From: Tilletia caries
Lineage: Eukaryota > Basidiomycota > Exobasidiomycetes > Tilletiales > Tilletiaceae
Assembly (NCBI GenBank): GCA_032718865.1
Contig: JALUTQ010000005.1
Coordinates: forward strand, 1,426,001 to 1,490,000
DNA: 64,000 nucleotides
Direction: 5' to 3'
The notes under the pieces: generated by a model
Told to the model about the DNA's origin: nothing
What the model saw: only the letters and a program-made list of their open reading frames with translations
The model's database searches: none
Position numbers and translations under genes: made by a program
In this document: positions 23,701 through 28,705 of the stretch, piece after piece
How the letters are laid out: each line of letters begins with the position of its first letter
Position numbering within the stretch: position 1 is the stretch's first letter

Positions 23701-25338
23701 GCACAGGCAGTGTCATGGAACTTGAATGAGTCGGACGAGGAAGGTGTCGAGAATGAAGCTGAGGGCGAACTTCGGTTCGCTCAGCTCAGGGAACAGTGGC
23801 GGTATGACGATGAGGCGGGTCGATGGGCTGGCTTGGGCCTTTGTGGTCTGGGAGGGATGGAAGAGGATGAGGAAGCAGTGATGGACGACTTCGACCAGCG
23901 ATTCCTTCGCTTCAGAATGTCTCTCCTTGAGGAAGCCGATCTGTGCAAGTTGTCGACGGACTTGACGCACATAATGCAAGCTCAGGTTGCGGCGGAGCAG
24001 CCTCCGCCCTTGCCTGTGGGGTACGTCGGTTCGAGTACCTCTACAGGTGCGAATGCCTCGGCAAATTCTGCCTCGCCCGCAAGAAGCGCTCGATCTGCGT
24101 CCCTCATCCCGGCCGGGGCGATTGCACCAGCTCCACAGGTGACCAACATGGGAACATCGGTCATGTCGAACATACCCACATCGACACCGAACAGGCCCGC
24201 TGCATTTGCAGCCTCGGCATTTCAGCAACTGACACCCCTGCAGCAACAGCAATTGCTGCAACAACAGCAAATCCAGCTGCGGTTGGCACAGGCTCAAGCA
24301 CAAGCTCAGGCACAGGCAGCGCAACAAGTTCACGCTCACGCTCAGGCGCAGGCAGCCCAAGCGCAGGCACAGGCTCAGGCACAAGCTCAAGCCCAACGGA
24401 ACTCAAACGGACAGCTGAAAGTGTCTGGGCTGCAACAGCGCCGAGGGCCGGGCAACTTTCCGAACAGCCCTTTGAACCCCTCCCCGCAGCCTCAGTACCA
24501 GCAGACACCGCACCCTCTGTCACAGTCGCATTCCTTCAATAGTTCGGGGACCCCGAGTATGCAAGGAACCCCCGGTATGCAGGGTGGAGGTATGCCACAA
24601 GGCATGCAAGGCTCTCAGTCAGGCGGACCTGGAATGCAAGGACCGTCAGGGCCGCACTCGTCGCCGTTTATGAACGGCCAGGGATTCCCATCAGCGATGC
24701 CTAGTCCCCAGTTGCAGGCGCAATACCGGACCTCATCTTCTCCGATTCCGAACGGACCTGGTTCACCGCATTTTGTCCAGCAACAGCAGGCCCAGATGCG
24801 GATGGGGAATGGGCAAGTCCATTCGCCGGACCTGGCGAGTCACCAAGCTAGCCAGTTCCAGCAACAGCAGCATCAAGCACAGCAACAGCAGCAACAAGCT
24901 CAAATGCTGGCGGCCGCCGCTGCGGCCAACCCGCAGCTGAATGGTATGATGCCTGCGAATGCGAGTGTGCAGCAACTGTTGGCGATGAAGGCTGCGCTGA
25001 GTCAGAATCCTCAGCTCCAGCTGAAACTCCCGCCACAGCGAGCGCTCGCGGTGCAGATGGCTGGGCAGACGGGTCCCGGTGGCGTCTCGTACTCCAATGT
25101 TCAATCGAGCCCGCTCCTGGTCCAGCAGCAGCTTGGCTTAGGTCCGGGTGGGATGGGACGGATGTCTGCTTCTCCCGTCCCTGTTCCTGCCACGATCCCT
25201 CAGCAAGGCGGCCCCCAAGGTCAAGGTCAGCATGGGTCTCCTCTGCTGTCGGCTCACGGAGGACAGAACGGTCATTCGCCTTCGCCGGTGCCAACGTCTG
25301 CTCAGGCCCAGTACATCGGTGCTGGGTTTGGCCATTGA
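20786..25338 (+). CDS. EPL1: Enhancer of polycomb-like protein EPL1, NuA4 acetyltransferase subunit
   Basis: Model 20786-20851, 20987-21257, 21425-25338 (1416 residues); the last exon is certain and the first two are inferred. The family core is clear: GVDRSEVSEHHLQAAL across the second splice junction, IPTPE, a YxWWKERRE block, DPYVCFRRREVK near residue 385, LLHIEKLIRLQ, and FRKRVGRGGR near residue 635. EPL1 scaffolds the Esa1/Yng2/Eaf6 catalytic module of NuA4 on chromatin. The C-terminal 400 residues are glutamine-rich, with alternating Gln-Ala runs (about 1050-1105) and Met-Gln-Gly repeats, and the frame is unbroken. The distal N-terminal exons could differ, since the first exon has only a weak RRLKK match. 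Confidence 0.85.
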
Positions 25339-25762
25339 AAGGCCATTGGAGGAGCTTTCCTGTTCGAAGTGGCTCACGACGCCAACGACCCCCTCAACCC
25401 TCATGTCGACCCCACCTTTTATGCATCGCGTCTTTCCCCACCATCTCGGCCTCCGACAGACATTTCCTCTTGCTGATCTGTTGTACTCCCTTGTATACCG
25501 TCGGACACAGCGAAAACATACCTCAGCACCAGCTGCACTAGTGGGCGTTTCCCAGTATTTTCCCGTTATATTTCAGGCCTCCTTTGTGAATGGCTGCGCA
25601 TACATACACGAGGGACTTGGGAGATCTCGAACAGGCGTGTCCATGGAAGCGACGTGAGGCAATGCACTGCTTCTTTGTTCTTGGAACCATGCGCTGCATT
25701 TCAAGCCTGTACTATATACAGACTAGTGCAATGGCCGAAGCCAAAGGGGTGCAGCTCCCAAA
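25339..25762. other. Intergenic between EPL1 and the Fanzor locus
   Basis: EPL1 3' flank. No coding frame of note. The right end runs into the Fanzor-associated hairpin. Confidence 0.6.
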
Positions 25763-25784
25763 CGCCGATCACGTGTGATCGGCG
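25763..25784 (-). ncRNA. GC-rich hairpin downstream of Fanzor, candidate guide-RNA scaffold or element end
   Basis: Two perfect 10-bp arms (CGCCGATCAC and GTGATCGGCG) flank a 2-nt centre, about 135 bp past the Fanzor stop. In TnpB and Fanzor systems the guide RNA scaffold lies at the 3' end of the gene and ends at the element boundary. Position and structure fit that, but a rho-independent-like hairpin or chance palindrome is possible. Typed as ncRNA on inference only. Confidence 0.35.
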
Positions 25785-25795
25785 GCATTTTTCCG

Positions 25796-25912
25796 GAAAG
25801 AAAAGGCAAAAAGGGAAAAAGAAAGCGAGAAGAGCGCAAGGAAAAAAGCGCAAGAAAAAGAAAGTGAAAAGAAAATGTAGAGGAAAAGGAAAAAGAAAAA
25901 GAGAATATGTCG
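25796..25912 (-). other. Pyrimidine-rich tract in the Fanzor 3' flank
   Basis: About 115 bases that are nearly all T and C in the sense of the Fanzor gene (purines on the plus strand), right after the stop codon. A similar tract fills the gene's first intron (about 27400-27660). Confidence 0.75.
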
Positions 25913-25918
25913 CTGTCA

Positions 25919-27341
25919 CTAGTTGAGAAAATCATATTTCCAGTGGAGGAAAATGTTTTTCGCGCCATTGACGTCTCGATCCGAGACTGTGAGACATCCG
26001 GGGCAGCGGTGGATTTCGCTGCCTCCAAGTCTGTAATTGACCGTGCCGCACGTTGAGCAGACCTTGGATGTCCAGTCCTCCACCACCTCGACGACCTCCA
26101 TAGCTTCATTTAATCGGCTTCTGAAGCGACCGTGCGCCCACGTCATCATGGCTCTGACTGTCTTTGACCCGATCCGCCTTTGACCTCGCCGAGACATCTG
26201 GTGCGCGTTGAATGTTGGCAGCAACACAGTGTCAAAATTTTGCTTGAGGTAGCCACGCAGCTTCCAATGAAGCTCGTCGACCAGATGCCGGATTCTTGCA
26301 CGCAGTCGATTTGCGGCGCGGCGCATACGGTAACGCTTTTTTGCTGTAGCTTGGGTTGATCGCGAGATCAACTGATCCAGGTGCGTACCGAGGCGGAAAA
26401 GACGCTTGTGGTCTCCATCGCCAAATTTTGCCGCCATTCCCCGCAAAGGGTCGTAAATCGTGGCAAATGTCCGAACGCCGGGGTCAATGACGCACATTTG
26501 TGGCCCACGTGCTGCAGGAACCCGCATCTTCTCTTCCCCCATGTCCTTCTGCCAAAGCAGGAACCATGATCGGTTCTCCTGCTTGATGCATGCCCCATCA
26601 TGCTCCAGCGATGGAACGTCGATCCCCGTCTGAATCTTGGTCTGGTGCTGACCTGGACCCAGACCGAAATTTGAGATCTTGAGGCATCCTCCAACCCAGT
26701 CACGGGTCCGAATTCGGAAGGAGGAGAAGAGCGCCCGCTTTTTCCGGAACTTCAGCTCGAAGTTCGGAATTTTGCCGTCCCGAACGTCCGCCAAGCCATT
26801 CTGAAGCGCTGTACGGGCCTCAAGGCACGCCTGCTCCCTGATGCTGTATGGCACCGGAGTCACCCATGACAGGTTCATGAGGGGAAGGCCATCCTCTGTG
26901 ACTGAATGTTCCCGGACGTCGTTTAAAGAGGCGTTTGGGTGAGCCTTGAGGTACGCCACCGCCCGGTTGTATGTCCACCTGAATATTCCAGCCGTTTTTC
27001 GAAGTGCCTCCTTTTGCTGTGTATTCGGCCGAAGCCGGGTGCGATACGTCTTCAATCGCGAATTGTTTTTGGCGCTCTCCAGGCCTGGTCCTACGAGACG
27101 GCGGTGGTGGAGGCACAGCGTCGAGGCGCTGCCGGAGTGTAGCGCTCAGCTCCGTGAGCATCCCACCGATATCTTCATCCGGCACGACTGGATGCGGCAG
27201 GAAGGCGTATTTCGGTAGAAACCAAGTATCGATGGGCGCATTATGCCACTCCGCCGCCTGTTGTGTGCCTTCTACGCCAGGCCACAGCACCGATTCTGGT
27301 GCTACTGACCCAATCCAGGGCGGAGGCGGAGGGTCGGCCAT
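25919..27341 (-). CDS. Fanzor: eukaryotic TnpB-like RNA-guided endonuclease
   Basis: The large exon encodes a TnpB-type protein: an N-terminal KTYRTRLRPNTQQKEALR start with FRWTYNRAV (the wedge/OrfB helix-turn-helix start), a RuvC-I Asp in VIDPGVRTFATI, an Arg-rich bridge-like helix, a TSKVCSTCG...HRCPGC zinc finger, and a RuvC-III Asp in SDRDVNGAKNI. The canonical RuvC-II Glu is absent (VLLPTFN), but Glu residues sit just before the zinc finger (VVEVVEDWTSK), the relocated position known from Fanzors. The open frame lacks an ATG; 27055 is TTG. Best model: ATG at 27341, exon 27341-27167, a 76-nt intron (GTGGGA...GTAG, 27166-27091), exon 27090-25919. This gives about 448 residues with a proline-rich N-terminus. 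A frameshift instead of the coding intron is the alternative. No transposase or serine recombinase lies nearby, so it may be a solo or host-retained copy. Confidence 0.88.
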
Positions 27342-27347
27342 GGTGAT

Positions 27348-27666
27348 CTGTATATAACAAATAAGAGAAAAAATAGGAGCGGTGCTGGTCAGTCTCTTGA
27401 TCTAACGATGATGACGCAAAAATGAAAAAAAAAGAAAAGAAAAGGAAAGAAAAGAATGAAAAAAGGAGCGGTGCTGGTCACGTGGTTGGTCTTTTAATCT
27501 AATAATGATAAGGAGAAAAGAAGAAGAAAAAGATAAAAGAAAACGGAAAAAAAAGAAAAAAAGAATGGCCACGAACAAAAACTACAGAACGAAAAACGGC
27601 AGAAAACAATACACAAAAATACAGAAAAACAAATAAAAAACGAAAAAAAACATGAAAAACACTCAC
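27348..27666 (-). other. 5'UTR intron of the Fanzor gene (319 nt, pyrimidine-rich)
   Basis: Donor CAAG/GTGAGT at 27666 and acceptor TATACAG at 27348 lie just before the ATG at 27341. The upstream exon (about 27790-27667) has no ATG in the sense strand, so it would be an untranslated leader. The intron is long for this genome and is mostly T and C in the sense direction. Confidence 0.6.
27375..27480. repeat. Duplicated 17-mer within the Fanzor 5' intron
   Basis: AGGAGCGGTGCTGGTCA occurs at 27375-27391 and again at 27464-27480. Related flanks follow each copy (a CTTGATCTAACGATGAT-like stretch and a TTTTAATCTAATAATGAT stretch). This is an imperfect direct duplication of about 89 bp. Confidence 0.85.
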
Positions 27667-27813
27667 CTTGAACTTTCACCGAGGCACGGATGTTAACGCC
27701 GAAGAGGATGTTCGACAGACAGTCACGTGGCAAAAGCAAACTATGAGTCGACAAGAGGGCGAAGAGCCGAAAGGGGGGGGAAGAGGACGGTTGCTGGTGG
27801 CGGGAGGTGGCTT

Positions 27814-27821
27814 CTTATATA
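27814..27821 (-). promoter_or_regulatory. TATA box of the Fanzor gene
   Basis: TATATAAG on the minus strand, about 150 bp before the GTGAGT donor of the inferred leader exon. It gives a plausible transcription start near 27785. Confidence 0.5.
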
Positions 27822-28705
27822 GCTTCGTGGCTGTATAAGTGACGTAATGCACACTGGTCACCAATGCACAGACATCGAATACCATGGAAGCCCGTGGAAG
27901 CGAGTGTTTAGCTCAGACCGCCTTCGCTTCGGATTCCATCATCAAATAATGGGAGCCCCGCGACAACGCGACGACTATAAGCAGATACATAGAGAAACGT
28001 CGCAGTTGCCAACAAAGCTCGCCAAGCGATGCGCCTTTCATGGGACGATCTGATAAAGCCGCATCGTCACTCCTGCCTGCGGCTTGCATGCGATGATACT
28101 GACACTGCATCTTGTATCACTCTGCAGAATGCCGACTGAATTCTGTTCTTCAGCAAGGGGCAAATCAGTGCATCAGGCAAGCACGCGGAGCTCATGGCCG
28201 TTAACAACGATTACAGAGCCATGGTCCTCCATCAACAGTTGCCGGTATGAGTGGGAACGGGGTTAAAGCGGTTAAGATCTTGCGACACTCTCCTGGAGCA
28301 GAGGACTTGCAACAAAATCACGAAGCATTCTTCGTACTTAATTTGCCACTGTAGATACATCGAATGGACTCTCTACGTTTCCCTATCGGATTTTGTTGTC
28401 ACCTACCTGGGTCTCTGGTCTCGCAGCAGACAACATTCAAGGTGACCTGCTCTTCGCTTGCAACGTATCACCGATCCAGGCGTAAAGAAGAAGTATTTTT
28501 GCATTGCTTTGAGGCGGGTCCGGTCGCTGTTGCGGACGTCCGTTGGATAGGGTAAAAGAGGGCATGCGTCGTCCATCGTCCGTCCCCTGCTACTCGTGCT
28601 TGGACCACGACGACGAAGGGAGCATTCAGCGCTGCTTCCACCAACACCGCATCAGCATACTTTAGTCAAGAGGATCCTGTTCGCATCCCGTCGCATTCAC
28701 TACCA
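27822..28705. other. Intergenic between Fanzor promoter and YSC84-like gene
   Basis: Only short frames without family features. The last 150 bases hold the promoter and leader of the gene starting at 28706. Confidence 0.55.

What the first reader, a model, noticed from the sequence alone, without database searches (positions are those of the whole stretch)
25919..27341. Intact, intron-containing Fanzor (RNA-guided nuclease) gene in a fungal chromosome
Sequence: a TnpB-type protein with the RuvC-I Asp (VIDPGVRTF), a C4 zinc finger (CSTCG...CPGC) and the RuvC-III Asp (SDRDVNG), uninterrupted over 378 codons and extended to about 448 by an upstream exon. Established: Fanzors are eukaryotic TnpB homologues that cut DNA with a guide RNA. 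Inference: the clean frame, spliced structure and absence of a transposase suggest selection to keep it in a basidiomycete. It is the strongest candidate for an undescribed active system here.
Basis: partly seen in the sequence, partly recalled or inferred. Interest (0 to 1): 0.95.

Follow-up and report, generated by a model that had tools for sequence, protein, structure and literature searches.

The report
Jumping Fanzor gene carrying host-DNA scraps
This is one damaged copy of a mobile RNA-guided DNA-cutting enzyme gene that has spread through what is probably a wheat-bunt fungus genome, keeping the same guide-RNA-like tail while pieces of the fungus's own DNA are joined to its other end.

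Summary
The protein is real and Fanzor2-type: both published Fanzor active-site fingerprints are present, and its best solved match by profile and fold is mimivirus Fanzor2. Unbroken copies are one frame of 473 or more codons; the window copy alone of 19 compared has a net length change there that breaks the frame. A leader intron (27666-27348) is plausible. It is not a lone host gene: the genome (Tilletia, inferred) holds 18 copies of its right end, 50 coding matches or fragments, and a second Fanzor family. The right end (25692) is sharp, with nearly always different flanks. It closes a predicted guide-RNA scaffold that varies far less than third codon positions and whose predicted pseudoknot recurs, with changed bases, in the second family. 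Left borders differ: copies carry stitched genomic fragments upstream (two proteasome-subunit pieces identified), including two in the window copy. No serine recombinase domain was found. I read it as a Fanzor2 that left IS607 for one-ended, DNA-capturing, Helitron-like spread; the mobilizing enzyme is inferred, not shown.

The parts
25919..27341 (-). Fanzor2-type nuclease coding region; start codon at 27341, stop at 25919-25921. In this copy the frame from the ATG ends early (frame listed to 26820) and the catalytic part lies in another frame (open 27145-25919)
25922..27052 (-). Catalytic core (377 aa): TnpB-type HTH, RuvC-I IDPG, E six residues ahead of the zinc finger, C4 finger, RuvC-III RD
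   Evidence: the 473-aa unbroken copy
27348..27666 (-). Probable T-rich intron in the 5' leader, GT...AG
   Evidence: donor pattern in 14 of 21 loci, acceptor pattern in 16 of 21; not seen in RNA
27809..27824 (-). TATA-box-like motif (AGCTATATAAGAAGCC)
   Evidence: read; motif pattern matched in 11 of 21 loci
25692..25800 (-). Predicted guide-RNA (omegaRNA/reRNA) scaffold: hairpin 25784-25763; hairpin 25759-25747 whose loop GCUGCA (25755-25750) can pair with the terminal UGCAGC (25698-25693) as a pseudoknot; hairpin 25724-25704
   Evidence: the MFE folds of 47 and 48 show the terminal pairing as a closing helix; the small hairpin is the pseudoknot reading
25692..25692 (-). Sharp right end shared by the copies; flanks differ beyond it
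25672..25691 (-). Predicted guide of this copy (first 20 bases of flank); occurs once in the genome at up to 2 mismatches
   Evidence: position; uniqueness; guide role inferred
25801..25918 (-). Pyrimidine-rich stretch between stop codon and scaffold; insertions in several copies fall at its start
25692..27905 (-). Core shared with other copies (12 of the 19 other Fanzor loci fetched reach 27905; 13 of 19 reach the right end within 10 bases)
27919..28087 (-). Joined genomic fragment, 87% or 90% identical to C23:1117381-1117554; 13 unassigned bases (27906-27918) before the core
28087..28566 (-). Joined genomic fragment, 99% identical to C23:1122569-1123048; no other match was listed upstream to 29600

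Best explanation
The window holds one frame-broken copy of a multicopy mobile element, probably of a Tilletia fungus, that encodes a Fanzor2-type RNA-guided nuclease. Shown: a single-frame protein of 473 or more codons in unbroken copies; a D-E-D active site with the Fanzor fingerprints; a fixed right end with nearly always different flanks; a non-coding tail at that end that is more conserved than the coding region; left borders that differ between copies and carry stitched genomic fragments; no serine recombinase domain found in one six-frame Pfam search. Predicted: the tail folds into a pseudoknotted scaffold. Inferred: the tail is transcribed as the guide-RNA scaffold and the bases past the right end are the guide, so each insertion is reprogrammed to its own site; the enzyme would cut the matching empty site and so favour keeping the element (TnpB-type model). 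Also inferred: spread is one-ended and replicative, anchored at the right end, with read-through or template switching at the left that adds host DNA, most like Helitron/IS91 rolling-circle transposition in trans.
For: Family; Tilletia rows one group, 100/99 (57). Copies and right end: (18 sites, 16 exact and 2 with one mismatch; backward control 0). Tail: z -3.13/-3.34; 3 of 106 variable columns against 82 of 473 third positions in 14 copies (62; Fisher p 2.7e-5, 98). Pseudoknot possible in both families, the feature reported for IS607 TnpB and predicted for Fanzor2s. Joined fragments: L014 from C30, C32 and C22 loci, L010/L012 from C32:924032-925229, L020/L028 from C3 and C5, window from C23; Pfam names proteasome pieces in L010 and L020. 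No PF00239; 60 Helitron_like_N matches. Precedent: Fanzor1 families CRe-1/2/3 on Helitron2, 5' truncated with intact 3' ends and some captured 5' sequence.
Against: The right end does not look like a canonical Helitron end (recalled features). No other element with the same terminal 22 bases was found at up to 3 mismatches (69). Left ends of most copies and the ends of this genome's Helitrons were not seen, so the rolling-circle step is not shown. Some left borders are shared by a pair (L010/L012, L025/L026), so they are not always new. The pseudoknot register and helix length were chosen after seeing the sequences (139 and 206 of 20000 shuffles do as well, 89); the 85-base family-2 fold alone is unremarkable (z -0.86, 59). 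No RNA data, no empty site. The recombinase search could miss an intron-split gene. The window copy itself is broken.
Confidence: 0.75

Rival explanations
1. Single host gene kept by selection, with an upstream coding exon.
For: Open 408-codon frame; pN/pS 0.41 across 19 copies.
Against: Net indel unique to the window copy (0 in 18 of 19); 18 right ends with nearly always different flanks; the proposed intron is coding elsewhere.
Confidence: 0.04
2. IS607-type Fanzor2 element whose serine recombinase was lost, missed or acts from elsewhere; differing left borders are later rearrangements.
For: Fanzor2 kinship; no TIR or TSD found; the base after GCAGC is G in 16 of 17 right ends, like the fixed flanking base of IS607.
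Against: No PF00239 match in the genome while 10 of 14 control genomes gave one; IS607 elements have two precise ends, here left borders differ.
Confidence: 0.15
3. Spread by reverse transcription (LINE-like, fixed 3' end, 5' truncation and template jumps).
For: Fixed right end with differing, chimeric left borders.
Against: Copies keep the probable leader intron and TATA-like motif; joined pieces appear by eye to keep introns; no poly-A at the right end.
Confidence: 0.15
4. Segmental duplication and ectopic recombination in a repeat-rich genome rather than transposition.
For: Two copies share one right flank in inverted order (L024/L027); L020 and L028 share about 2 kb upstream at 99.2%.
Against: Flanks diverge at the same base in all but that pair of the 17 right ends seen; three copies of a second family behave alike at their own end.
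Confidence: 0.08

Closest known systems
Fanzor2 of IS607-type elements (mimivirus L79, PDB 9b0l)
   Different: No serine recombinase domain found in the genome; differing left borders with joined genomic DNA
Fanzor2* (Fanzor2 in non-IS607 transposons, Chloropicon and molluscs; NAR 2023 gkad1053: abstract, sections 23-26 and passages seen)
   Same: Fanzor2-type protein apparently outside IS607; pseudoknotted guide RNA predicted
   Different: Those sit in cut-and-paste elements with TIRs and TSDs; none found here
Chlamydomonas CRe-1/2/3 Fanzor1 elements on Helitron2 (Bao and Jurka 2013: abstract, sections 5, 8, 13 seen)
   Same: Intact 3' end, frequent 5' truncation, some captured sequence at the 5' end, likened there to one-ended IS91 transposition
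   Different: Fanzor1; they share ends with known Helitrons and often have TSDs; no mosaics of several host fragments are described in the sections seen
Pro-Fanzor TnpBs of cyanobacteria
   Same: Same DPG clade; cyanobacterial and Chloroflexota proteins are among the hits
   Different: The seven named bacterial rows form a group (100/100) apart from the nine Tilletia rows (drawing root only)

Membership tests
Fanzor (any) | DPG in RuvC-I | tested here: met
   IDPG in the window; D286 and P287 in 66 of 66 aligned rows, G288 in 65 of 66
Fanzor (any) | Alternative Glu six residues ahead of the zinc finger | tested here: met
   E-DWTSKV-C in the window; E421 in 64 of 64 rows with a letter there, 2 rows gapped. 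By a strict text pattern over 121 stored proteins, 86 have both marks, 33 DPG only, 2 the Glu mark only
Fanzor2 | Closest to Fanzor2 by profile and fold | tested here: met
Fanzor2 | Guide RNA on the 3' side with pseudoknot | tested here: inconclusive
   predicted in both families; no RNA data
Fanzor2 | RNA-guided DNA cleavage | not testable with these tools
   needs bench work (referred)
IS607 element | Serine recombinase TnpA | tested here: not met
   0 PF00239 matches in the genome; control rings in 10 of 14 genomes; an intron-split gene could be missed
IS607 element | Two precise ends | tested here: not met
   right end precise, left borders differ between copies; true left ends mostly not seen
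Fanzor1 | Sequence or fold kinship closest to Fanzor1 | tested here: inconclusive
   no chain named Fanzor1 listed, which does not exclude kinship
Helitron | Rep/helicase encoded in the element | tested here: not met
   the core holds only the Fanzor frame; Helitron_like_N occurs elsewhere, 60 matches, so it would be non-autonomous
Helitron | Canonical ends 5'-TC / CTRR-3' (recalled) | tested here: not met
   right end reads ...AATGCAGCG; left end not determined
Helitron-like one-ended element (works-like claim) | One fixed end, differing other end, joined host sequence | tested here: met

The most novel reading that the evidence does not exclude
A Fanzor2 lineage that left IS607 and now spreads in a fungus by a one-ended, DNA-capturing process in which the only fixed end is the 3' edge of the guide-RNA scaffold. 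Each move both acquires a new guide and stitches host gene heads, promoters perhaps included, to the other end, so that an RNA-guided nuclease element acts as a shuffler of host sequence. In the boldest form, the guide-RNA end itself defines the fixed end of mobilization.
Probability: 0.3. Interest if true: 0.8.

Novelty: new variant of a known kind. Interest (0 to 1): 0.58.

Why it matters
The non-IS607 Fanzor2s named in the section I read sit in cut-and-paste elements. This would be a different association, in a genome with no serine recombinase domain found. Two Fanzor families there show sharp right ends; joined host DNA was shown only for the first. Eighteen right ends in one assembly give a natural series for defining a Fanzor2 guide-RNA boundary, and the system would link an RNA-guided nuclease to capture and rearrangement of host sequence in a fungal genome.

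Tried and rejected
Intron 27166/27091: rejected, coding in other copies. Target-site duplications: a search of the flank of 17 right ends against the fetched sequence upstream gave only 7-8-base repeats, but most true left ends may lie outside the fetched stretches; a short CATG at both borders of the window copy (read) is too short to claim. Terminal inverted repeats: none noticed. C5:897500-907400 (L049) as an autonomous partner: it has the right end and the upstream host piece but no coding match to the Fanzor region; three of its open pieces gave no Pfam match. I thought one piece MULE-like by eye; unsupported. Insertions at like places in several copies: by eye nested transposons with their own repeats. 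Rfam on 25000-28500: two matches far below their cut-offs, neither at the right end. An empty site for this copy's guide: only its own flank found. The lineages behind L052, L053 and L055 showed no right end I could define. Gene names QCR6, ERG6, SPT5 and an ABC transporter were read by eye; of five upstream pieces given to Pfam, three matched (proteasome in L010 and L020, NADH-ubiquinone oxidoreductase in L015) and two did not (L014, L013). The L015 and L013 pieces were not searched in the genome and may be neighbouring genes rather than joined fragments.

Full report
WHAT IS THERE. On the minus strand a frame is open from 27145 to 25919. Its 377-residue core matches Cas12f1-like_TNB (3.7e-12) and HTH_OrfB_IS605 (4.6e-10) in Pfam.

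GENE STRUCTURE. The genome G000 (38.1 Mb, 40 contigs) gave 50 protein matches, fragments included and a lower bound; 11 of the 50 rows cover at least 375 of 377 residues. I fetched 20 Fanzor loci and one locus with the right end but no Fanzor match. In 18 of these 21 loci the start-codon context was found. In 5 of the 18 the frame runs at least 473 codons; in the window copy it stops after 173; the other 12 break elsewhere. Over 93 bases around codons 80-110 (three rows cover 91 or 92), 18 of 19 copies show no net indel and the window copy alone does. Database proteins of T. caries (P0004) and T. laevis (P0001) read through the supposed coding intron. Hence no coding intron: the window copy is frame-broken, or misassembled. 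The leader intron 27666-27348 is supported by donor patterns in 14 of 21 loci and acceptor patterns in 16 of 21; no transcript was seen.

A MOBILE FAMILY WITH ONE FIXED END. Of the 19 other Fanzor loci fetched, 12 match the window from 27905 and 13 reach the right end. At 25692 they stop together (...GAAATGCAGCG). Seventeen right ends were seen in the fetched loci; their flanks differ except in one pair (L024/L027), and the base after GCAGC is G in 16 of 17. I aligned 15 of the 17; L017 and L020, whose tails are interrupted, fell to my filter (G in 14 of 15). The terminal 22-mer occurs 18 times at up to 3 mismatches (16 exact, 2 with one, none with two or three); its backward control gave 0. 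A second Fanzor family (P0007-like) has three copies on C34 with their own common right end (...CTAATGTAGCCG) and three different flanks.

A GUIDE-RNA-LIKE TAIL. The 109 or 149 bases up to the right end fold better than dinucleotide shuffles (z -3.34 and -3.13). In 14 copies with both parts, 3 of 106 tail columns vary against 82 of 473 third positions and 172 of 1419 coding columns (Fisher p 2.7e-5 and 0.002; copies are related, some are decayed, so p is only a guide). Mean pairwise difference is 0.53% in the tail, 3.1% in the coding region and 4.5% at third positions. In family 1 the loop GCUGCA of a small three-pair hairpin can pair with the terminal UGCAGC; in family 2 the loop GCUAC of a six-pair hairpin can pair with the terminal GUAGC. 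Such arrangements arise in 139 of 20000 and 206 of 20000 shuffles, with helix length and offset chosen by me after seeing the sequences. A pseudoknot of this kind is reported as needed in an IS607 TnpB and predicted for Fanzor2s (gkad1053 section 26). The 103-base family-2 fold has z -2.77, its 85-base core only -0.86. For the protein pN/pS is 0.41 over 19 rows and 0.40 over five unbroken ones: moderate constraint.

JOINED GENOMIC DNA AT THE LEFT. Upstream of the core the copies carry stitched pieces. L014 joins sequence matching C30:867193-867560, C32:915230-915878, a piece matching C32:1110128-1110287 (and, in part, C32:916112-916243), and C22:535945-536366 (the C22 border). Part of that mosaic recurs at C40:607627-608225, C7:1593829-1594453 and C23:542103-542583, on contigs and near places where other copies lie. 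L010 and L012 share 1.2 kb matching C32:924032-925229 (93%). L020 and L028 match C3:1056646-1058380 (95-96%) and C5:1340386-1340879 (95%). Pfam names proteasome pieces in L010 and L020, and an NADH-ubiquinone oxidoreductase piece upstream in L015 that was not searched in the genome and may be a neighbouring gene; two other pieces gave no match (five tested). Which locus is the native source was inferred from the absence of a Fanzor match there, not proved. The window copy carries two pieces: 28087-28566 (99% to C23:1122569-1123048) and 27919-28087 (87%, 90%, to C23:1117381-1117554), with 13 unassigned bases before the core. Left borders differ between copies, by eye often with a few shared bases at the joints, but L010/L012 and L025/L026 each share one.

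HOW IT LIKELY WORKS. Shown: fixed right end, differing left borders, copies that keep the probable leader intron. No serine recombinase domain was detected (0 matches; control in 10 of 14 genomes); Helitron-type Rep domains are abundant (60 matches). Bao and Jurka describe Chlamydomonas Fanzor1 elements on Helitron2 that are 5' truncated with intact 3' ends, liken this to one-ended IS91 transposition and mention captured 5' sequence (section 8). I infer the same logic here for a Fanzor2: replication anchored at the guide-RNA end, open-ended on the other side. Against it, the right end is not a canonical Helitron end (recalled) and no partner element with the same end was found. My confidence is about 0.9 for a Fanzor2-type mobile family, 0.75 for the whole description, and about 0.4 for the Helitron-like step alone.

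NOVELTY. Searches of the held open-access library for Fanzor with Tilletia, Tilletia with TnpB, Fanzor with basidiomycete and Fanzor with gene capture returned 0 papers. Fanzor with TnpB and fungi gave 17, Fanzor2 with Helitron 4; I read parts of three of these (Bao and Jurka 2013; gkad1053; passages of Saito 2023, which says Fanzor2 is found broadly in fungi). Tilletia with transposable elements and Helitron gave 2; passages of one, on bunt genomes, list helitron ORFs and in those passages no Fanzor. Supplementary tables, subscription papers and preprints were not searched, so Tilletia Fanzors may be listed there. I call it a new variant of a known kind.

Noticed in passing
L024 and L027 (G000:C5:1949178-1956520): Two Fanzor copies lie tail-outward with the same right flank, suggesting an inverted duplication of element plus flank.
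   Followed up: no
P0003 and P0006 (Tilletia indica database proteins): Two different Fanzor lineages carry a near-identical N-terminal stretch, which in P0003 follows and overlaps the end of a BET domain: possibly a captured host gene piece fused in frame, or a gene-prediction effect.
   Followed up: partly
L011, L015, L020, L026 interiors: Inserts with inverted-repeat-like ends interrupt several Fanzor copies, some close after the stop codon (by eye).
   Followed up: partly
G000:C34, C28, C4: Further Fanzor relatives at about 35-55% identity, many with stops: at least one more lineage besides the second family.
   Followed up: partly
L049 (G000:C5:897500-907400): Right end and upstream host piece of the family flank about 9 kb without a match to the Fanzor coding region.
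   Followed up: partly
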